Positions 1-50,586 of a DNA stretch of 64,000 bases are shown one piece after another. Location of the stretch: positions 28,050-92,049 of IMG/VR virus record IMGVR_UViG_3300028840_004217. One strand, 5' to 3'. Origin of the DNA: a virus. Each line of letters opens with the position of its first letter. Positions within the stretch are counted from its first letter, which is position 1. Both the position numbers and the translations under genes were made by a program. The notes under the pieces are model-generated. The model saw nothing but the letters and a program-made list of their open reading frames with translations, was not told the origin of the DNA and did no database searches.

Positions 1-2010
1 CGGGGCAAATACTACATCAAATACTGGAACGAGTCGGGCGAGGAACGCGTGCCCGTCGTCGCCGGGTACCGCGTCAAGAATGGCGCGAAGTGGCTCCGCA
101 TGAGCCTCAAGAAAACGCTCCAGGTGGTCGATCACGTCTGCATCCTCGACGACGGCAGCACCGACAGCACACCCCGCATCATCAACAGCCTGAAAAAGAA
201 ACACCCCGGCATGATCACCAACGTCCGGTACAACAGGCCGTTCCAGGAACTGCGCGACAGGAACGAGCTGTGGGACATGATGCACGCCGTGGGCAAAGAG
301 CTGCGGCCCGACCTGCCGGGGTGGGGCATCATCCTGGATGCCGACGAAGTGTTCGAGGACAAGGTGACGGCCGACTATCTCCAGATGCTGGCGCGGCCCG
401 TGCATCCCGACGTGCACGGGTATGTGTTCAAGGTGGACACCTTCTGGCGGGGCCGTGAGAAAATCAGGATCGACGGAACCTTCGGCAACCTGAAGGGCGT
501 CCGCATGGTTCGCTTCGGCGCCGAGCAACGCCTGTGGACGCCGCACCCGCAGGGTCTGCACTGCGGCAACACGCCGATGGTGCCGCCCGACTGGCTGGCC
601 CTCACCAACGTGCACCTCAAACACTACGGCTACGAGTCCTACGACCTGGCCAAGAAAAAATTCGAGTTCTATCATGTGACCGACTCGGTGAAGGACCCGG
701 TGAACGTCGGCGGCGACGGCTCCTACCGCCACCTGATCGACGAGACACAGCTGTCGATGGTGGACTGGCATGAGGAGAACACGCTGGGCCTCGGCATGAT
801 GGGCAGGAACGAAGCCGAGTTCCTGCCGCAGTTTTTCGAGCGCAACTTCTGGTGGACCGTGTTCGACCAGATGGTATTCGTGGACTGCGGATCGGAGGAC
901 GACACCAAAAACCTGGCCCTGGCCTACGGATGCCAGGTGTACGACATGCCCAAGAGCATCATCTTTCAGGAGGGTCCGCATGAAGGGAAGCTGAAGCACT
1001 TCGGCCAGGCCCGCAACTTCGTCAAGAGCAAGCTGGGCACGCGGTGGATCCTCATGATGGACGCCGACGAGTGGATAGAACGGGCGGACCACCTGGAGCT
1101 GTTGCGCCTCCTGGAGCATGACATCGTGGCCTACCGCATCAACGTGGCGAACCACCAGCCCAACGGAAGCATCTCCCACTCCGAGTCATTCAGGCTGTAC
1201 CGCAACATAGAGGACGTGTACTGGACGCAGCACGTGCATGAGTCGCTGGAAACGGCGTTGCAGCGCATGGGCCCTGCCGGGCTGACGGGCATCGCCCCGT
1301 TCATCGTTCATCATCTCGGCTACATGCGCGGCCCCGATTATGTGCAGGGCAAGCTGGAGCACTACGCCGACCTGAACAGGCTCGACGTGCGGGCCGACCC
1401 TGCGGACGCGCGGCCCTACTTCAACCTGGCCCTCCACGAACTCAACGAGGGCAACAACGAGGAGGGGGCGGAGCTGCTGTCCAAGGCGTGCGACCTGAAC
1501 CCCAACTTCATGCAGGCGTATAAAGAACTCGGCATGGTCTATTTCCGTCGTTCTCTGCCCCTGTTTGAACACGCCCTCAACGTGGTGTCGCCCGAGCATC
1601 CTGCCGCGCCGGGTCTCAAAGAGATCGTGGACTTCGCACGGAAGGCGGCGATAGAGCCGTTGAAGGTGGGCAACCCGAACAAGCCGTCGCCAGAGGACGC
1701 CGAAGAAACGCAGGAGACTGAAGAAGCGGCGGCGGACGTGGTACCAGAAGGGGAGGACGAGAAAACAGGGATAGACGCGCTGCGAGAGGCCCCTGTCGAT
1801 CCGGTGGCGGAGCAGTTGGGCGAAGCACTCACGGCGGCGGATGAGATCATCGCGGAACACACCGAGGAAGTCGTGAAGGAAATCGGTGAACAAGAGGACC
1901 GCGCCATAACAGGAGAACAGGATGTCATTCATAGCGGCGACGATGATACGGGTGAAGATGGACCCTCTGGACCCCGGAAATCCGACACCGATGATGAAGC
2001 GGCTGGATGA
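1..2010 (+). CDS. Tandem GT2 glycosyltransferase with TPR tail (5' end outside window)
   Basis: Predicted cytoplasmic enzyme moving sugars from nucleotide-sugar donors. The frame is open from base 1, so the start lies upstream; the GTG at 49 is only the first in-window start. Counting from it, a first GT-A domain has DDGSTDS at 34-40 and ILDADE at 95-100. A second has VDCGSEDDT at 278-286 and MMDADE at 336-341, i.e. two DxD-type metal sites. About 440-510 reads as TPR repeats, followed by an acidic tail. This domain order resembles SunS-like and other family 2 enzymes that act on proteins or envelope glycans. It sits just before the tail genes, so tail-protein or host-surface glycosylation is plausible, and sugar transfer to modified DNA cannot be excluded. 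The target is unknown. Confidence 0.85.
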   Translation, partial: RGKYYIKYWNESGEERVPVVAGYRVKNGAKWLRMSLKKTLQVVDHVCILDDGSTDSTPRIINSLKKKHPGMITNVRYNRPFQELRDRNELWDMMHAVGKELRPDLPGWGIILDADEVFEDKVTADYLQMLARPVHPDVHGYVFKVDTFWRGREKIRIDGTFGNLKGVRMVRFGAEQRLWTPHPQGLHCGNTPMVPPDWLALTNVHLKHYGYESYDLAKKKFEFYHVTDSVKDPVNVGGDGSYRHLIDETQLSMVDWHEENTLGLGMMGRNEAEFLPQFFERNFWWTVFDQMVFVDCGSEDDTKNLALAYGCQVYDMPKSIIFQEGPHEGKLKHFGQARNFVKSKLGTRWILMMDADEWIERADHLELLRLLEHDIVAYRINVANHQPNGSISHSESFRLYRNIEDVYWTQHVHESLETALQRMGPAGLTGIAPFIVHHLGYMRGPDYVQGKLEHYADLNRLDVRADPADARPYFNLALHELNEGNNEEGAELLSKACDLNPNFMQAYKELGMVYFRRSLPLFEHALNVVSPEHPAAPGLKEIVDFARKAAIEPLKVGNPNKPSPEDAEETQETEEAAADVVPEGEDEKTGIDALREAPVDPVAEQLGEALTAADEIIAEHTEEVVKEIGEQEDRAITGEQDVIHSGDDDTGEDGPSGPRKSDTDDEAAG

Positions 2011-43888: not shown

Positions 43889-44197
43889 ATGACCATCAAT
43901 CACGATTACACTGCTTTCTGGTTCTCGGACGCGGACGTGCGCAGCCTGCTCGCTACGGGCAAGGCCGACAGCTCTGCCTGTCCGGAGGGCGTGTGGAAGC
44001 CGTTTCACGTGGAGGTGGGTGAAGCCGCCAAATTCGACAAACGGAAGTTCGCCCTCACCATCACCCAGGAGGACGTCGAGTACCTGCACGTCCACCGCCG
44101 CATCGACGCGAAGGAGATCGCGCATGGCAACCGCAAAAAAGAAGCAACCCTCATCGTCGACGACATCTGCGCAGAAAGAGGCACCCCCCCAGGCTGA
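43889..44197 (+). CDS. Accessory protein of unknown function
   Basis: A 102-residue protein starting MTINHDYTAFWFSDADVRSL behind GGGAGG. Mixed fold with a basic/acidic C-terminus. Its end overlaps the ParB-like gene by 74 bases. No family recognised. Confidence 0.5.
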   Translation: MTINHDYTAFWFSDADVRSLLATGKADSSACPEGVWKPFHVEVGEAAKFDKRKFALTITQEDVEYLHVHRRIDAKEIAHGNRKKEATLIVDDICAERGTPPG

Positions 44198-44810
44198 CAC
44201 GGAGGTGCTGAACATCACGCGGGGCGACGACGGCAGCATCACCGTCGCTATGCCGGACATCAACGACAACCCGCTCGCCCGCTTCCGGTCCCGCATCGTG
44301 GCCACCGGATTCAAGCCCGCCAACCAGTTCACGGCCAACCCCCTGAACTGGCGTGAGCACCCGCCCGAACAGCGACAGGCCATGCAGGAGATACTGGCCA
44401 TGTTCGGCTGGATCGCTGGCGTGATCGAGAACCAGCGCACGGGCAACCTGATCGACGGCCACGAACGGATATGGGACGCACTGGACCAGGACGAGCAGAC
44501 CCTGGTGCCCTTCACGCTCGTCGACGTGAGCGAGGAGGAGGAAAAGCAACTGCTGGTGTTCTTCGACAAGGTGGGCGAGATGATCTACGCCAACCGGGAG
44601 AACCTGCGGCTGCTGATGGGGTCTGTCGGTGAAGAAGTGACCAACGAGAACGACGGCCTGCGCCTCCTGGCCAATATGATACAGCACCAACACCTGGAGA
44701 ACGAAAAAGCCTATGAGCCGCCCGACGAATTCCCGGAACACGACGAAGAAATCGACACGGAGTACTGCTGCCCCAAGTGCGGGTACGAATGGTCCGGCAA
44801 AGCCAGTTGA
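44124..44810 (+). CDS. ParB/sulfiredoxin-fold protein with zinc-ribbon tail
   Basis: A 228-residue protein starting MATAKKKQPSSSTTSAQKE. Residues about 70-170 match the ParB-like (ParBc) domain of phage proteins: NPLNWREHPPEQRQAMQEIL, then NLIDGHERIWDAL, where GHER is the usual nucleotide-binding/catalytic patch, and PFTLVDVSEEEEKQLL. The C-terminus has YCCPKCGYEW, half a zinc ribbon. Such proteins often sit beside phage DNA methyltransferases. It overlaps the C5-methyltransferase frame. Confidence 0.75.
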   Translation: MATAKKKQPSSSTTSAQKEAPPQADTEVLNITRGDDGSITVAMPDINDNPLARFRSRIVATGFKPANQFTANPLNWREHPPEQRQAMQEILAMFGWIAGVIENQRTGNLIDGHERIWDALDQDEQTLVPFTLVDVSEEEEKQLLVFFDKVGEMIYANRENLRLLMGSVGEEVTNENDGLRLLANMIQHQHLENEKAYEPPDEFPEHDEEIDTEYCCPKCGYEWSGKAS

Positions 44811-46122
44811 CAAGCCCCCCTTCGTCGTGCCCTCTATGTCAGAGATAGAAGCGACGCCGCCCAACGGGTACACCGTCGTCAGCACTTTCAGCGGTGCGGG
44901 CGGCTCCTGTCTCGGCATGCGGATGGCCGGGTTTCGTGTGGCGTGGGCCTCTGAATTCGTGGAGGCGGCCCAAGAGGTGTACCGGATGAACCACCCTATG
45001 ACGCCCCTCGACCACCGCGACATACGGGAGGTCAAGGGCCAGGACATCCTCGACACGCTCGGCATCAAAGTGGGTGAACTCGATCTCCTGGAGGGGTCGC
45101 CCCCCTGCGCCTCCTTCTCGCTGGCCGGCAAGCGTGAGAAGGGGTGGGGCAAGGTGAACGCCTATTCGGACACCAAACAGCGCGTGGACGACCTGTTCCT
45201 GGAGTTCGCCCGCCTGATCAAAGAGATGCAGCCCAAGGTGTTCCTGGCCGAGAACGTGCGGGGCCTCATATCAGGTGTGTCGAAGGGCATGTTCAAGGAG
45301 TTCCTCAAGACGTTCAAAGCACTCGGCTATGACACCAAAGCGTGTCTGCTCAACGCCAAGTGGCTCGGCGTTCCGCAGAACAGGGAGCGCGTGTTCTTCA
45401 TGGGCGTCCGCAACGACCTGAAGGTGCGTCCCGTTTTTCCCAAGCCCCTGCCCTATTACTACACGGTGCGGGAGGCCATACCCTGGATCGTGCGTCACAG
45501 CAAGAGCAAGTCGTCCGGACAGTGGAACACCGACGTGCCGTGCATAGAGCAGGCGCAGATGGTGCCGAGTGATCAGGAGGTCAGTTCGACGCTCCTGCAG
45601 GGCGGCAGCATGAAGGCGGCCCACTTCGCGGAGACCACGAAGGACGCGCCCGACGTGCCGGGCACCCGCCTGGTGATGGACAGCTCGGGCCAGTGGAAAA
45701 CGATAGACTTCACGGACGACGCCTCCCCCTGCGTCCGCGCCAGCGGCGTGGGCCACCTGTTCGTGGTGGAGGATGAATCGGAGATCAAAGAGGGTACGGC
45801 CCTGGCCGGTGAGTGGGACAAACTCGCGCCGGGACAGAAGGGCAAGTTCCTCAACTTCATCAAGGCGCGGCCCGACCTGCCGTGTCCCACGGTGACCGCG
45901 ATGGGCGGACAGCCCGCCGCCAGCGTCGCCCACCCGTACCAGCGTCGCAAATTCTCGATGGCCGAGCTGCGGCGCATCTGTGCTTTCCCTGACGACTTCA
46001 AGCTCACCGGATCCTACTCACAGCAGTGGGAACGCCTCGGACGCGCCGTCCCGCCGGTCATGATGTACCACATAGCCTCTGCCGTGCGCGATGGCGTCCT
46101 GCGGAGGATAGACCGTGGATGA
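44713..46122 (+). CDS. DNA cytosine-C5 methyltransferase with Arg in motif X; candidate carboxymethyltransferase
   Basis: A 469-residue enzyme with the full C5-methyltransferase order: motif I FSGAGG (59-64), motif IV GSPPC with catalytic C132, motif VI ENV (180-182), motif VIII PQNRERV (221-227), a recognition region about 240-390, and motif X LGRAVPPVMMYHIASAV (442-458). Family members nearly always read GN(A/S)V in motif X; here R444 (codon at 46042-46044) replaces Asn. In M.MpeI the engineered N374K/R change at that Asn permits use of carboxy-SAM. A CmoA-like gene lies in the same island. The ATG at 44836 is an alternative start; neither has a clear ribosome site. Confidence 0.85.
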   Translation: MSRPTNSRNTTKKSTRSTAAPSAGTNGPAKPVDKPPFVVPSMSEIEATPPNGYTVVSTFSGAGGSCLGMRMAGFRVAWASEFVEAAQEVYRMNHPMTPLDHRDIREVKGQDILDTLGIKVGELDLLEGSPPCASFSLAGKREKGWGKVNAYSDTKQRVDDLFLEFARLIKEMQPKVFLAENVRGLISGVSKGMFKEFLKTFKALGYDTKACLLNAKWLGVPQNRERVFFMGVRNDLKVRPVFPKPLPYYYTVREAIPWIVRHSKSKSSGQWNTDVPCIEQAQMVPSDQEVSSTLLQGGSMKAAHFAETTKDAPDVPGTRLVMDSSGQWKTIDFTDDASPCVRASGVGHLFVVEDESEIKEGTALAGEWDKLAPGQKGKFLNFIKARPDLPCPTVTAMGGQPAASVAHPYQRRKFSMAELRRICAFPDDFKLTGSYSQQWERLGRAVPPVMMYHIASAVRDGVLRRIDRG

Positions 46123-46954
46123 CGTCGCCGCCCTGTGGCGTGAAAAACTCCTCACCACGATGCAGCCCTACATCGACCTGCCCATCATGCTGTCGGGCGG
46201 CGTGGATTCGGGCACGCTCCTGTGTGCCGCCCTCGAACTCGGCGGCAGGCCACCCTGCTATTCTTTCAAGCTGACCGGACCCGACATACCGGACGTACAG
46301 GTGGCCCGTAAGATGGCCAACGACTTCGACCTTCCTTTTACCCTTATCGTCATACCCCGAAACGAAGAACAGCTCTTAAACGACATCAGAGAGGTCATCT
46401 CGCTGCTCGGCGTGTCCAAGAAGGCCAGCGTCCAGTGCAGCCAGCCCGTCATGTACATGTGCCGCCAGATGAAGGCCGACGGTTTCGACCGGGCCATCGT
46501 CGGGACGGGCGCCGTGTGTCTGGACGACAAGAAGGTGGCGATGCTGTGGGCCAAGGAGGGTGAGGAATCGGCCCGCGCCTACCGCGCGGCCAAGCTGAAT
46601 GACAAGAACACGAACTGCGGCACGGGCAACATGCACCGCATGGGCCGCATCTGCGGCGTCCCGCTCGTGGAACCGTACTCGGAGGAGCCCCTGGTGAGTC
46701 ACGCCCTGGCCCTCGACTATGCGGAGCTGAACAGGCCCAAGCAGAAGGGCATCGCCCTCCGCGCCTTTCCCGACTTCTGGAAACGGGGGTACTACCGTCG
46801 CAACTCGCCCCTCCAGGTGAACAGCGGCGTGCGTGAGTGGCACGACACGCTCCTGAAGTCGCCCGTCAACAACGGACACCAGGCGGTCGTCGCCATCTAC
46901 AACGAGATCCGAAAAGAACTGGAGGCCAAAGGTGAACTGGCCGAACCTCTATGA
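46115..46954 (+). CDS. Stand-alone asparagine-synthase-type ATP-pyrophosphatase ligase
   Basis: A 279-residue protein with the PP-loop SGGVDSG at 27-33 and the later pattern VPLVEPYSEEPLVSHALALD ... KQKGIALR of the AsnB C-terminal domain. Such domains adenylate a carboxylate and pass it to an amine. The N-terminal glutaminase domain of AsnB is absent, so the amine is probably not glutamine-derived ammonia, as in beta-lactam synthetase relatives. It starts with GTG overlapping the methyltransferase by eight bases and overlaps the aminotransferase by 23. It could form an amide on a carboxylated base; this is inference. Confidence 0.7.
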   Translation: MDDVAALWREKLLTTMQPYIDLPIMLSGGVDSGTLLCAALELGGRPPCYSFKLTGPDIPDVQVARKMANDFDLPFTLIVIPRNEEQLLNDIREVISLLGVSKKASVQCSQPVMYMCRQMKADGFDRAIVGTGAVCLDDKKVAMLWAKEGEESARAYRAAKLNDKNTNCGTGNMHRMGRICGVPLVEPYSEEPLVSHALALDYAELNRPKQKGIALRAFPDFWKRGYYRRNSPLQVNSGVREWHDTLLKSPVNNGHQAVVAIYNEIRKELEAKGELAEPL

Positions 46955-48062
46955 TATGGCCTATCTCGAAGCCGCCGAGCGGGTGTTGCGATCGCAACGG
47001 TACACGCAGGGGGCGGAACAAGCGGCTCTGGAAGCTGAATTCGTCCGGTGGCTCGGCGTGGACGATATGCACGCGGTGGCTGTCACGAACGGGACGGCGG
47101 CGTTGCAGGCCGCGCTGCTGGCCCACGGCATCCTGCCCGGTGATGAGGTGATCGTGCCGGCGCTCACGTTCACCGCCACCGGCCTGGCCGTCAAGCGCGT
47201 CGGTGCCGTACCCGTGTTCGTGGACATCGACCCGCAGACCCTCACCATCGACGTGGACCAACTCAACTATGCGGTGACGCCGCGCACAAAGGCGGTCATA
47301 GCGGTCGACCTGGACGGCCACCCGGCGCACTACGACGCACTGGAACCGTTCTGTGAAGGGCGCGGCCTGTTCCTCCTGGAGGATGCCTGTCCCGCCCACG
47401 GCTCGGTCCTCGACGGCCGCATCTGCGGGACCTTCGGTGACGCCGCCGCCTTCTCTATGAACCAGACCAAGATACACGGCGTGGGTGAGGGCGGCATGGT
47501 CGTGACGCGCCACGCACACCTGGCAGTGCGGGTACGGGCCCTCCGCGACTTCGGAGAAGTGGAGCGGCGCAAGCTGCGGGTGTCCACCCTGATGGGCGAC
47601 AACTGGAAGCTGGATGAGATGGGCGCGGCCATGGCCCGCGTGAGCCTCGCCTTCCTCGAGGAGCGCATCCGGACGTGCGTGGAGAACTGCGGCGTGCTGG
47701 ACGAAGCGATGAACGGGTTGCACTGGATACGACGGCCCCACATCAGGCCGGGTGCGTATGTGGTGCGCCACAAGTACCGCGCCAGAATCAACGGCAAGCG
47801 GGAAGCGATAGAGAATGAGATGACCGTGGCCGGGATACCGGTGACCGTGACGGACGTGCTGCCCCTGCCGCACCATCCGGTTTTCGAGCATGAACAGGCT
47901 GACGTGCCCCAGGCCGACCTCGCCGTGGAGAACACGGTGGTGATCGGATCACGTGAGTCACCACTGTGGGCTGTGTCCCGCGATGCCGTCGCCGTGTGGG
48001 GCGACAAGCTGCGGGGCGTTGAGACGAGGTTGTGGTCAACGATGAAAGGAGCGAACCGTTGA
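46932..48062 (+). CDS. DegT/DnrJ/StrS-family PLP aminotransferase
   Basis: A 376-residue enzyme with the DegT layout: TNGTAALQAALLAHGILPGD for phosphate binding, GDEVIVPALTFTATG, EDACPAHGS with D151, and FSMNQTKIHGVGEGG where K180 should carry PLP. Family members aminate keto-sugars or inososes (StsC in streptomycin synthesis). It starts with GTG inside the previous gene. With the inositol-phosphate synthase next door, an inosose-derived amine is an attractive product, but an oxidising enzyme for inositol is not seen here. Confidence 0.85.
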   Translation: MNWPNLYDMAYLEAAERVLRSQRYTQGAEQAALEAEFVRWLGVDDMHAVAVTNGTAALQAALLAHGILPGDEVIVPALTFTATGLAVKRVGAVPVFVDIDPQTLTIDVDQLNYAVTPRTKAVIAVDLDGHPAHYDALEPFCEGRGLFLLEDACPAHGSVLDGRICGTFGDAAAFSMNQTKIHGVGEGGMVVTRHAHLAVRVRALRDFGEVERRKLRVSTLMGDNWKLDEMGAAMARVSLAFLEERIRTCVENCGVLDEAMNGLHWIRRPHIRPGAYVVRHKYRARINGKREAIENEMTVAGIPVTVTDVLPLPHHPVFEHEQADVPQADLAVENTVVIGSRESPLWAVSRDAVAVWGDKLRGVETRLWSTMKGANR

Positions 48063-48210: not shown

Positions 48211-49371
48211 ATGAGCAATCTCACGGAAGTCAAACACGATCATCCTCGGGTGGCCATCGTCGGCGTGGGCAACTGTGCCAGCGCCCTGGTGCAGGGCACG
48301 CAATACTACGCGGACAACGACACGAAGGAAGGGCTGGTGCGCCACATGATCGGCCCCTATGCGCCGGAGCACGTCCAGTTCAGTGCGGCCTTCGACGTGG
48401 ACCCGCGCAAAGTGGGTCACGACCTCGGACGCGCCATCAACCTGGGTGAGAACAACACCTGGCAGATGGTGCGCGACCCGTGGCACCGCAACGTACAGGT
48501 GGTCGAAAGCCCGGTGATGGACGGCCTGGGCAGAACCTACCGATCGGTGCTGCCCGCCCTGAACGGACGCGGGGATCGACCCACCTCCGAGGAGGACGTC
48601 GAATTCTATGCCGACATCCTGAGTGAATCGGACACCACCGTCCTGGTCAACTACCTCCCGGTGGGTTCCGAAGTCGCCACCCGCTTCTGGGCCGACGTGT
48701 GCCTGACGGCGGGCGTGGGTATGGTGAACGCGATCCCGGTGTTCATAGCGTCCGACCCGCAGTATCAAGCCGCCTTCGAGGAGCGCAACCTGCCCCTCAT
48801 GGGCGACGACATCAAGAGTCAGTTCGGGGCGACGATACTGCATCGCCTTCTGGCTCGCCTCGTGGGTGCCAGGGGCTACACCCTGGACAAGACCTACCAG
48901 CTCAATTTCGGCGGCAACATGGACTTCCGCAACATGCTCGACCATGAACGCCTCGCCTCGAAAAAGAAAAGCAAGACGGGCGCGGTGCAGGCCGAGTATG
49001 ACATAGAGGACGACCTGGTGCACATCTCTCCGTCCGACTATGTGCCGTGGCTCAAAGACGAGAAGTGGTGCTACATCAACATGCACCTGTCGGGATTCGG
49101 CGGCGCGCCGTCCGAGCTGGAGTTGAAGCTGAAGGTGTGGGACAGTCCCAACAGCGCGGGGTGCGTGATCGACTGCGTGCGCATCTGCCACCTGGCACTG
49201 CGGTGCGGCCTGGGCGGCACGCTCAACTACCCGTCCGCCGTGTACATGAAGTCGCCGCCCGAACAGATCGCGGACAGTCAGGCCGACATCAACCTGGATG
49301 CCTGGATAGAGGCCATGATGAACATCCTCGATCCGGTCACAAGCAACCATGAGTATGAAATCGTCGAATGA
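48211..49371 (+). CDS. myo-Inositol-1-phosphate synthase (short bacterial type)
   Basis: A 386-residue NAD-dependent enzyme converting glucose 6-phosphate to inositol 3-phosphate. VAIVGVGNCASALVQG is the NAD loop; VNYLPVGSEVATRFWAD, LMGDDIKSQFGATILHRLLA and TYQLNFGGNMDFRNM with the LKLKVWDSPNSAG region match the actinobacterial-type synthases. The ATG at 48211 follows AAAGGAA; an upstream ATG at 48136 gives a non-conserved extension. The 148-base gap before it has no gene. The enzyme is rare in phages and suggests the phage makes a cyclitol. Confidence 0.85.
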   Translation: MSNLTEVKHDHPRVAIVGVGNCASALVQGTQYYADNDTKEGLVRHMIGPYAPEHVQFSAAFDVDPRKVGHDLGRAINLGENNTWQMVRDPWHRNVQVVESPVMDGLGRTYRSVLPALNGRGDRPTSEEDVEFYADILSESDTTVLVNYLPVGSEVATRFWADVCLTAGVGMVNAIPVFIASDPQYQAAFEERNLPLMGDDIKSQFGATILHRLLARLVGARGYTLDKTYQLNFGGNMDFRNMLDHERLASKKKSKTGAVQAEYDIEDDLVHISPSDYVPWLKDEKWCYINMHLSGFGGAPSELELKLKVWDSPNSAGCVIDCVRICHLALRCGLGGTLNYPSAVYMKSPPEQIADSQADINLDAWIEAMMNILDPVTSNHEYEIVE

Positions 49372-49867
49372 CATCGCAATGAACGGCGTGATTGCCAAAG
49401 AGATACGGGAGCCCGTCAACGCAGGCCGCCCGTTCTTCGTGGGGCAGGCACCGGGGCGTGACGGAGGCCGCCCACTCCTGGGGGCGGCATACCGCCGCTT
49501 CGGCGCACCCCACGGTATGACCGTCGAAGAATTCGCAGCCGCCACGGACCGGGCCAACCTGATACCCTACTGGCCCGGCAAGTCGGGCAAAGGCGATGCC
49601 TTCCCCAAAGGCGAGGCCAGGACGGAAGCCTGTCGCCTACCTTTGCACGGACGTCACCGCGTCCTCCTGCTCGGACAGAACGTGGCGTCCTGTTTCAACA
49701 TAGCGGGCGGTGACATGCTGGAGTGGTTCGTACACCCGCGCGGATTCATCTGCGCCGTCCTGCCGCACCCGTCCGGCATCAACAGGCAGTGGAACGACGC
49801 GGCCACCGTCGACCAGGTGAACGACTTCATGGCCCGCGTGTGGGACAATGCGAAGGAGAGATCATGA
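49349..49867 (+). CDS. Uracil-DNA-glycosylase-superfamily-like protein
   Basis: A 172-residue protein. FVGQAPGRDGG (30-40) corresponds to the GEAPG motif A and LPHPSGINRQWND (138-150) to the HPS motif B of the UDG superfamily. The remaining core VLLLGQNVASCF fits the central strand and helix. Instead of excising uracil it may act on an unmodified or modified base in the phage's own chemistry. The start is uncertain (49349, 49355 or 49379); the first overlaps the inositol synthase by 23 bases. Confidence 0.65.
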   Translation: MSMKSSNDIAMNGVIAKEIREPVNAGRPFFVGQAPGRDGGRPLLGAAYRRFGAPHGMTVEEFAAATDRANLIPYWPGKSGKGDAFPKGEARTEACRLPLHGRHRVLLLGQNVASCFNIAGGDMLEWFVHPRGFICAVLPHPSGINRQWNDAATVDQVNDFMARVWDNAKERS

Positions 49868-50586
49868 GTAAAGAAACCGGCACGGACCATGTGATGCCCG
49901 AGGACAAGTGGGCGTTCGACGACGAAGTGACCGACGTGTTCGATGACATGCTCGCACGCTCTATACCGCAGTATGACGTGATGCGCGAACTCACGTTTCA
50001 ACTGGCCGCACACTTCCAGCAGGACAAGACGGACATCCTCGACATGGGATGCTCACGCGGGGAAGCCGTCGCCGCCCTGATCGACAAGTTCGGCGCCAGC
50101 AACCGGTTCACGGGCATCGACGTGTCGGAGCCTATGCTGAAAGCGGCCACCGACAGATTCCAGGGCTACATCAACTGCGGCGTGGTCGACATACGGCACT
50201 GTGACCTGCGTACCGACTTCCCGAACGTGTCCGCCTCCGTCGTCCTCTGCGTTCTCACGCTCCAGTTCACGCCGATAGAATACAGGCTCCGCATCATACA
50301 GGACATCTATGACCATCTCGTTCCAGGCGGGGCCCTATTACTGGTCGAGAAGGTACTTGGGGCCTCAGCCCGTATAGATACCCTGATGGTAGATGAATAC
50401 CTCCTGATGAAGTCTACGCAGGGTTATTCAAGAGATGAGATAGACCGGAAGCGGCTTTCACTGGAAGGCGTACTCGTACCGGTGACGGCGCGTATGAACG
50501 AGGAATTCCTTCAGTCGGCAGGCTTCAGAGAGATCGACTGTTACTGGCGGTGGCTCAACTTCATGGGCTGGCTGGCCGTCAGGTAG
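49864..50586 (+). CDS. CmoA-like carboxy-SAM synthase
   Basis: A 240-residue SAM-dependent protein whose whole length follows E. coli CmoA: KWAFDDEVTDVFDDMLARSI near the start, ILDMGCSRGEA as SAM loop, VVLCVLTLQFTPIEYRLRII, DHLVPGGALLLVEKV, GYSRDEIDRKR and a closing CYWRWLNFMGWLAV. R197 aligns with CmoA R199, which holds the extra carboxylate. CmoA makes carboxy-SAM from SAM and prephenate, normally for tRNA with CmoB; no CmoB is seen here. The ATG at 49864 overlaps the glycosylase-like gene (ATGA) behind AAGGAGAG. Confidence 0.75.
   Translation: MSKETGTDHVMPEDKWAFDDEVTDVFDDMLARSIPQYDVMRELTFQLAAHFQQDKTDILDMGCSRGEAVAALIDKFGASNRFTGIDVSEPMLKAATDRFQGYINCGVVDIRHCDLRTDFPNVSASVVLCVLTLQFTPIEYRLRIIQDIYDHLVPGGALLLVEKVLGASARIDTLMVDEYLLMKSTQGYSRDEIDRKRLSLEGVLVPVTARMNEEFLQSAGFREIDCYWRWLNFMGWLAVR

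What the first reader, a model, noticed from the sequence alone, without database searches (positions are those of the whole stretch)
46027..46083. Motif X Asn replaced by Arg in the C5 methyltransferase
The enzyme reads LGRAVPPVMMYHIASAV where the family has GN(A/S)V. R444 is coded by CGC at 46042-46044. All other motifs, including catalytic C132, are intact, so this is not decay. The same position is where a single engineered change gives carboxy-SAM use in M.MpeI: a basic side chain there can pair with the extra carboxylate.
Basis: partly seen in the sequence, partly recalled or inferred. Interest (0 to 1): 0.9.

Follow-up and report, generated by a model that had tools for sequence, protein, structure and literature searches.

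The report
Phage DNA carboxymethylation operon with aminocyclitol genes
A virus of bacteria carries an enzyme that very probably puts an acidic carboxymethyl group on its DNA (a reaction published in 2025), and beside it, unusually, two genes that probably make a sugar-like amine to be attached to that group, which would be a DNA decoration not yet described.

Summary
In detail: the C5-methyltransferase at 44713-46122 reads LGRAVPP, with Arg444 (CGC, 46042-46044) where the family has Asn. Yang et al. 2025 (PMC12783734) described this enzyme, CmoX, with a crystal structure (8YF3) in which the equivalent Arg350 (Asn304 of HhaI) holds the carboxylate of carboxy-SAM. Here 8YF3 is the best PDB match by sequence and by fold. 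What seems new is the operon. Between CmoY (the amide ligase) and CmoA lie a DegT/StrS aminotransferase and a myo-inositol-1-phosphate synthase. The same order, CmoX-CmoY-DegT-MIPS-CmoA, occurs in a divergent phage contig (34-55% identity), and CmoX-CmoY-DegT on a Microbacterium contig that ends there. These three CmoYs share a motif unlike that of the glycine-adding CmoY. Most likely the phage supplies an amine, probably an aminocyclitol, to be ligated to 5-carboxymethylcytosine. The Arg-to-cofactor step rests on strong homology; the identity of the amine is inference.

The parts
44019..44810 (+). ParB/Srx-like protein (ORF; the conserved part is the C-terminal half) that usually sits just upstream of CmoX
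   Evidence: PHROG ParB-like partition protein E 2e-12; a homologue lies upstream of CmoX in most loci; Yang et al. report ParBc neighbours
44713..46122 (+). CmoX: predicted DNA cytosine C5-carboxymethyltransferase, 469 aa, Cys132 catalytic
   Evidence: PF00145 E 7e-60; 8YF3 best PDB hit, E 9e-62; Foldseek top hit 8YF3
46042..46044 (+). Codon CGC = Arg444, replaces the motif-X Asn (HhaI N304; S-B43 CmoX R350)
   Evidence: covariation with CmoA
46115..46954 (+). CmoY-like AMP-forming amide ligase, 279 aa, ATP-pyrophosphatase domain only (no glutaminase domain); overlaps the CmoX stop by 8 bases
   Evidence: PF00733 E 8e-11; model pLDDT 91, Foldseek top hits beta-lactam synthetase and asparagine synthetase B
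46932..48062 (+). DegT/DnrJ/EryC1/StrS aminotransferase with the PLP lysine kept (SMNQTK..GEGG)
   Evidence: PF01041 E 5e-79; top PDB hit named glutamine--scyllo-inositol transaminase; invariant Lys in L268 and L216
48211..49371 (+). myo-inositol-1-phosphate synthase (MIPS/Ino1), actinobacterial type
   Evidence: PF01658 E 4e-32; M. tuberculosis Ino1 1GR0 E 4e-100; GDDIKSQ, SKKxSKT, DSPNSAG, MKSPP motifs kept
49349..49867 (+). Uracil-DNA-glycosylase-superfamily-like protein; also found in some other CmoX-type operons, with Arg or Asn motif X
   Evidence: PF03167 E 2e-4, below cut-off; homologues beside CmoX-type genes in L001, L042, L034
49864..50586 (+). CmoA: predicted carboxy-SAM synthase; start codon overlaps the previous stop (ATGA); keeps the Arg199 equivalent
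   Evidence: TIGR00740 CmoA 167 bits (cut-off 193; the proven S-B43 CmoA scores 116); E. coli CmoA 4GEK E 8e-29 with KR aligned to KR

Best explanation
The protein is CmoX. It flips out a cytosine, attacks C6 with Cys132 and transfers a carboxymethyl group from carboxy-SAM to C5; Arg444 binds the extra carboxylate and so selects carboxy-SAM over SAM. CmoA, encoded at the end of the same operon, makes the carboxy-SAM from SAM and prephenate. CmoY then activates the DNA-borne carboxylate as an acyl-adenylate and joins it to an amine. In this operon the amine is most likely made by the two extra enzymes: MIPS cyclises glucose-6-phosphate to a cyclitol phosphate and the DegT aminotransferase puts an amino group on a keto-cyclitol, giving an aminocyclitol (or its phosphate). 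The result would be 5-(aminocyclitol-amido-carboxymethyl)cytosine, shielding phage DNA from host nucleases. Status: CmoX and CmoA chemistry inferred from close homology to proven enzymes; amide formation inferred from family and fold; the aminocyclitol is inferred from gene content and order only.
For: Chemistry of homologues proven with structure 8YF3. Arg444 aligns gap-free with R350. CmoA neighbour in 115/120 Arg enzymes, 0/48 others. CmoA keeps Arg199, which salt-bridges the carboxylate in E. coli CmoA. CmoY has the beta-lactam-synthetase/AsnB ligase fold without a glutaminase domain. Five-gene order CmoX-CmoY-DegT-MIPS-CmoA repeated in L268 at 55/51/34/46/48% identity; CmoX-CmoY-DegT on L216, where the contig ends. 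The CmoYs of window, L268 and L216 share GTG(A/G)V..D(D/N)(K/R) and NSP(L/M)QVNSG(V/I/L)R(E/D)WH, unlike the H.NLQLGDSGI type. MIPS plus aminotransferase is the proposed aminocyclitol route of hygromycin A (PMC10949010). DegT sits beside MIPS in other phages too (L379, L382-L384). Extra genes are overlapping or closely spaced, with the same codon-position GC as their neighbours.
Against: No inositol monophosphatase (PF00459) or Gfo/Idh/MocA dehydrogenase (PF01408) in the 92-kb record, nor the dehydrogenase in the L268 contig, so the route is incomplete unless the host supplies these steps or the MIPS releases its ketone intermediate. DegT substrate cannot be told from sequence: no NCBIfam equivalog is met. 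DegT pairs are only 34-37% identical, so the substrate may differ. The cassette is rare: MIPS near CmoX in 2 lineages among 236 loci that include many near-duplicates. The CmoX model has low confidence in its variable insert.
Confidence: 0.5

Rival explanations
1. CmoX, CmoY and CmoA work as published, with CmoY adding glycine or free ammonia, while DegT and MIPS serve another purpose (virion or host glycan decoration, inositol or mycothiol supply) and merely share the operon.
For: The published CmoY adds glycine. The genome also encodes several glycosyltransferases and radical-SAM proteins. Most phage MIPS genes lie outside CmoX operons.
Against: DegT and MIPS sit between CmoY and CmoA in overlapping or closely spaced genes, in two divergent phages in the same order, with a CmoY motif class shared by the loci that have DegT.
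Confidence: 0.27
2. The amine is another product of DegT plus MIPS-like enzymes, for example an amino sugar or a five-membered aminocyclitol, since MIPS homologues can make other rings.
For: A close MIPS homologue in the PDB is a five-membered-cyclitol-phosphate synthase (6K96). DegT enzymes act on many nucleotide sugars.
Against: The MIPS is much closer to M. tuberculosis Ino1 (339 against 170 bits).
Confidence: 0.15
3. The enzyme is an ordinary SAM-dependent C5-methyltransferase; the Arg is neutral drift and CmoA serves tRNA.
For: The family is mostly SAM-dependent, and CmoA is best known from tRNA cmo5U synthesis (general knowledge).
Against: Arg tracks CmoA; wild-type S-B43 CmoX does not accept SAM; no CmoB-like (PF08003) protein in the record.
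Confidence: 0.03

Closest known systems
CmoX/CmoY/CmoA system of Synechococcus phage S-B43 (Yang et al. 2025, PMC12783734; PDB 8YF3)
   Same: Arg at the HhaI-N304 position, SPPC, CmoA and AMP-forming ligase next door; ParB-domain neighbours are reported for the family.
   Different: The window adds DegT, MIPS and a UDG-like gene inside the operon; its CmoY is about 26-27% identical to SpCmoY and lacks the H.NLQLGDSGI-type motif; its CmoA is nearer to canonical bacterial CmoA.
Streptomyces phage TurkishDelight (NC_073473) CmoX operon
   Same: Closest sequenced isolate CmoX (48% over 94%), ParB upstream, CmoA downstream.
   Different: Its ligase carries a glutamine amidotransferase domain, so ammonia is its likely amine; no DegT or MIPS.
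Engineered M.MpeI N374K carboxymethyltransferase (as cited in PMC12783734)
   Same: Basic residue at the same motif-X position gives Cx-SAM use.
   Different: Engineered, CG-specific and Lys; this is natural, Arg, specificity untested.
Hygromycin A aminocyclitol pathway (MIPS Hyg18, phosphatase Hyg25, dehydrogenase Hyg17, aminotransferase Hyg8; PMC10949010)
   Same: MIPS plus aminotransferase logic for an aminocyclitol.
   Different: Here the phosphatase and dehydrogenase are not found in the record; the product would go onto DNA.
Stenotrophomonas phage Moby MIPS in a 7-deazaguanine DNA-modification cluster (L103)
   Same: Phage MIPS next to DNA-base hypermodification genes (FolE, QueC, DpdA-like, QueE).
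   Different: Different base chemistry; MIPS is followed by a small protein with HAD-phosphatase-like motifs, absent here.

Membership tests
CmoX (DNA cytosine C5-carboxymethyltransferase) | Arg at HhaI-N304 / S-B43 R350 position | tested here: met
   Arg444 aligned gap-free with 8YF3, all-Arg column in A1
CmoX (DNA cytosine C5-carboxymethyltransferase) | SPPC catalytic motif and C5-MTase fold | tested here: met
   Cys132, PF00145, Foldseek 8YF3 first
CmoX (DNA cytosine C5-carboxymethyltransferase) | CmoA in the genomic neighbourhood | tested here: met
   49864-50586, TIGR00740 best
[quoted passage not shown]
   needs the enzyme or phage DNA
CmoA (Cx-SAM synthase) | Arg199 that salt-bridges the carboxylate in E. 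coli CmoA | tested here: met
   KR aligned to KR in 4GEK and 1IM8; role from PMC3663124; numbering of 4GEK assumes a 14-residue N-terminal tag
CmoA (Cx-SAM synthase) | NCBIfam TIGR00740 score over its cut-off | tested here: not met
   167 against 193 bits; but the experimentally proven phage SpCmoA scores only 116, so the cut-off is too strict for phage members
CmoY (AMP-forming amide ligase of the CmoX system) | Asn-synthetase-like ligase domain beside CmoX | tested here: met
   PF00733, fold, position 46115-46954
CmoY, glycine-adding type | Sequence features of the SpCmoY cluster | tested here: not met
   H.NLQLGDSGI-type motif replaced by RRNSPLQVNSGVREWHD, and the AD(G) loop by GTGAV; the published glycine-binding residues themselves could not be read
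Myo-inositol-1-phosphate synthase | PF01658 and conserved active-site motifs | tested here: met
   below the mycothiol Ino1 equivalog cut-off (373 of 638)
Inosose aminotransferase | Keto-cyclitol as substrate | not testable with these tools
   DegT family met; no equivalog met

The most novel reading that the evidence does not exclude
A natural DNA base in which 5-carboxymethylcytosine is amide-linked to a phage-made aminocyclitol (amino-inositol or its phosphate), made by a conserved five-gene phage cassette CmoX-CmoY-DegT-MIPS-CmoA.
Probability: 0.4. Interest if true: 0.85.

Novelty: new variant of a known kind. Interest (0 to 1): 0.5.

Why it matters
The 2025 CmoX paper left open which amines other CmoY ligases attach. 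If CmoY operons carry the genes that make their own amine, gene content predicts the base, which makes that open question testable: here an aminocyclitol, in L073 perhaps a polyamine-type amine (a SpeD-like gene lies between CmoY and CmoA), in TurkishDelight-like phages ammonia. It would add inositol-type chemistry to DNA and give a ligase for attaching bulky amines to DNA. It also turns the Arg-versus-Asn position into a simple sequence test for carboxymethylation.

Tried and rejected
Neutral drift of motif X: rejected by the Arg/CmoA covariation. A tRNA role for CmoA: no CmoB-like protein found. Assembly chimera or stray insertion of DegT and MIPS: rejected, same order in L268 and matching codon-position GC. 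Single-sequence viral scans with window MIPS, CmoY and DegT found nothing; alignments were needed. DegT near CmoX in L285, L286, L311 and L315 was first taken as more support, but in L285 it lies with genes whose sequence looks like GDP-mannose dehydratase and a sugar epimerase/reductase (read by eye), so these were not counted. Weak CmoA hits (40-60 bits) were checked: CmoA is the best NCBIfam family in all those scanned. No carboxy-SAM docking could be run; 8YF3 answers that question. The supplementary figure with the glycine-binding residues of CmoY could not be read. The phage host was not resolved: the terminase has only weak hits.

Full report
Observation. The ORF at 44713-46122 (+) encodes a 469-aa C5-cytosine methyltransferase (PF00145 E 7e-60). 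Its motif X reads LGRAVPP; codon 444 (46042-46044) is CGC, Arg. The SPPC cysteine is residue 132, and the other signature motifs are present.

What the Arg is. A paper of December 2025 (PMC12783734, read) describes CmoX of Synechococcus phage S-B43, a C5-methyltransferase homologue that uses carboxy-SAM and makes 5-carboxymethylcytosine. In its crystal structure (8YF3) Arg350 stands where HhaI has Asn304 and touches the carboxymethyl group. The wild type takes only carboxy-SAM; R350N takes neither cofactor. The window protein's best PDB match is 8YF3 (E 9e-62), the motif-X stretches align without a gap, and an AlphaFold2 model (pLDDT 71.6, low in the variable insert) has 8YF3 as its first Foldseek match (E 4e-28).

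Relatives were taken from IMG/VR and from one genome per species of GTDB. Aligned, the column is Arg in 120, Asn in 44, Met in 3, Leu in 1. A CmoA-like gene lies nearby in 115 of the 120 Arg rows and in none of the 48 others (Fisher p about 1e-36 without regard to relatedness). Of the five Arg rows without CmoA, L218, L237 and L216 stop within 0.1-1.9 kb after CmoX, L053 is cut 0.6 kb upstream, and L245 has a CmoY. Ten weaker or representative CmoA calls all had CmoA as their best NCBIfam family. On a quick tree Asn rows lie inside the Arg clade, with 6 independent pairs on the best tree but only 1 on well-supported branches. These counts come from the nearest relatives found by motif patterns, not from a random sample, and include related sequences.

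The operon. Downstream of CmoX lie an Asn-synthetase-like ligase (46115-46954), a DegT/StrS aminotransferase (46932-48062), a myo-inositol-1-phosphate synthase (48211-49371), a UDG-like protein (49349-49867) and CmoA (49864-50586), with overlaps or short gaps between them. Large terminase (by position and size) and portal genes follow; the window is bases 28050-92049 of a 92,049-bp virus record. CmoA scores 167 bits against TIGR00740, below the cut-off of 193 but above the proven S-B43 enzyme (116), and keeps the Arg that binds the carboxylate in E. coli CmoA (PMC3663124). No CmoB-like protein is present in the record.

CmoY. The 279-aa ligase is modelled with high confidence (pLDDT 91); Foldseek puts beta-lactam synthetase and asparagine synthetase B first. 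Both activate a carboxylate with ATP and let an amine attack (established knowledge). It has no glutaminase domain, unlike the TurkishDelight ligase, so ammonia from glutamine is unlikely.

The extra genes. In most of the other CmoX loci surveyed CmoA follows CmoX or CmoY directly. Among 236 loci with a CmoX-like gene (many near-duplicate) MIPS occurs only in the window and in L267/L268, two contigs of apparently one phage. L268 repeats the order CmoX-CmoY-DegT-MIPS-CmoA at 55, 51, 34, 46 and 48% identity. L216, a contig from a Microbacterium genome bin, has ParB-CmoX-CmoY-DegT and then ends. The CmoYs of these three share two motifs that differ from the type to which the glycine-adding S-B43 CmoY belongs. 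L073, with a related CmoY, has instead a SET-like and a SpeD-like gene between CmoY and CmoA. This suggests that such operons carry the genes for their own amine; it is an inference from few cases.

Mechanism proposed. MIPS would make a cyclitol phosphate from glucose-6-phosphate; DegT would aminate a keto-cyclitol; CmoY would join the amine to 5-carboxymethylcytosine. MIPS plus aminotransferase is the proposed logic of hygromycin A aminocyclitol synthesis (PMC10949010), which also uses a phosphatase and a dehydrogenase. Neither PF00459 nor PF01408 is found in the 92-kb record, nor PF01408 in the L268 and L073 contigs. Two ways out are the host's enzymes, or release of the inosose-phosphate intermediate that MIPS forms on its way (from general knowledge of the enzyme). 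Other phages place DegT beside MIPS (L379, L382-L384) and MIPS beside 7-deazaguanine DNA-modification genes (L103, L160, L163, L171 and others), which fits a use of cyclitols in phage DNA modification but does not prove it.

Verdict. The Arg is a hallmark of a family published in 2025; this protein is a new member. The CmoY-DegT-MIPS arrangement is a new variant and points to an undescribed amide on carboxymethylcytosine. The first part is nearly certain by homology; the second is a testable inference at about 40%. The combined confidence given for the best explanation (0.5) is for the whole chain with an aminocyclitol or closely similar DegT/MIPS-derived amine.

Noticed in passing
L073:10239-11198 (IMGVR_UViG_3300036818_000127): Between a CmoY and CmoA lie a SET-domain-like ORF (by eye; no PHROG or NCBIfam hit) and a SpeD/AdoMet-decarboxylase-like gene (TIGR03330 69 bits, cut-off 76), a possible polyamine-type amine source for that CmoY.
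   Followed up: partly
L153:7983-10253, L157:7980-10265, L159: Phage contigs with MIPS, a small protein with HAD-like motifs and CmoA in a row; no CmoX-like hit was found in the fetched flanks, so another carboxy-SAM user may exist there.
   Followed up: partly
L103, L160, L163, L165, L171, L177, L180: Phage MIPS plus a conserved small protein (FDIDGV..ITGR..FEDDP, HAD-phosphatase-like by eye, no Pfam hit) beside FolE/QueC/DpdA/QueE: MIPS seems tied to 7-deazaguanine DNA modification too.
   Followed up: partly
L379, L382, L383, L384: DegT next to MIPS without CmoX; in L382 with a ParB-like-looking ORF upstream and a PAPS-reductase-type ATPase (PF01507) downstream; possibly another cyclitol-amine DNA modification cluster.
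   Followed up: partly
L015 (949-2004), L257, L259, L264: Motif X with Leu (GLSVPP) or Met (GMSVPP) in place of Asn and no CmoA nearby; effect on the cofactor unknown.
   Followed up: no
L285, L306, L307, L311, L317, L335: Two CmoX genes in tandem (e.g. GRMVAPKM and GRMVAPKV) with one CmoY and one CmoA; perhaps two DNA specificities.
   Followed up: no
L187-L205 (Verrucomicrobiota genome bins): Several ParB-CmoX-CmoA copies on different contigs of the same genome bin, likely several prophages or binned phages.
   Followed up: no
49349-49867; L001, L042, L034: A UDG-superfamily-like protein (GQAP...PGK..KGDAFP...HPSG(V/I)N) recurs beside CmoX-type genes with Arg and with Asn.
   Followed up: partly
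G000 bases 2434-28500 (L105, L106) and window 100-2007: The same virus encodes three radical-SAM proteins (two with B12-binding domains, one of these with an intein-splicing-like domain) and several glycosyltransferases.
   Followed up: no
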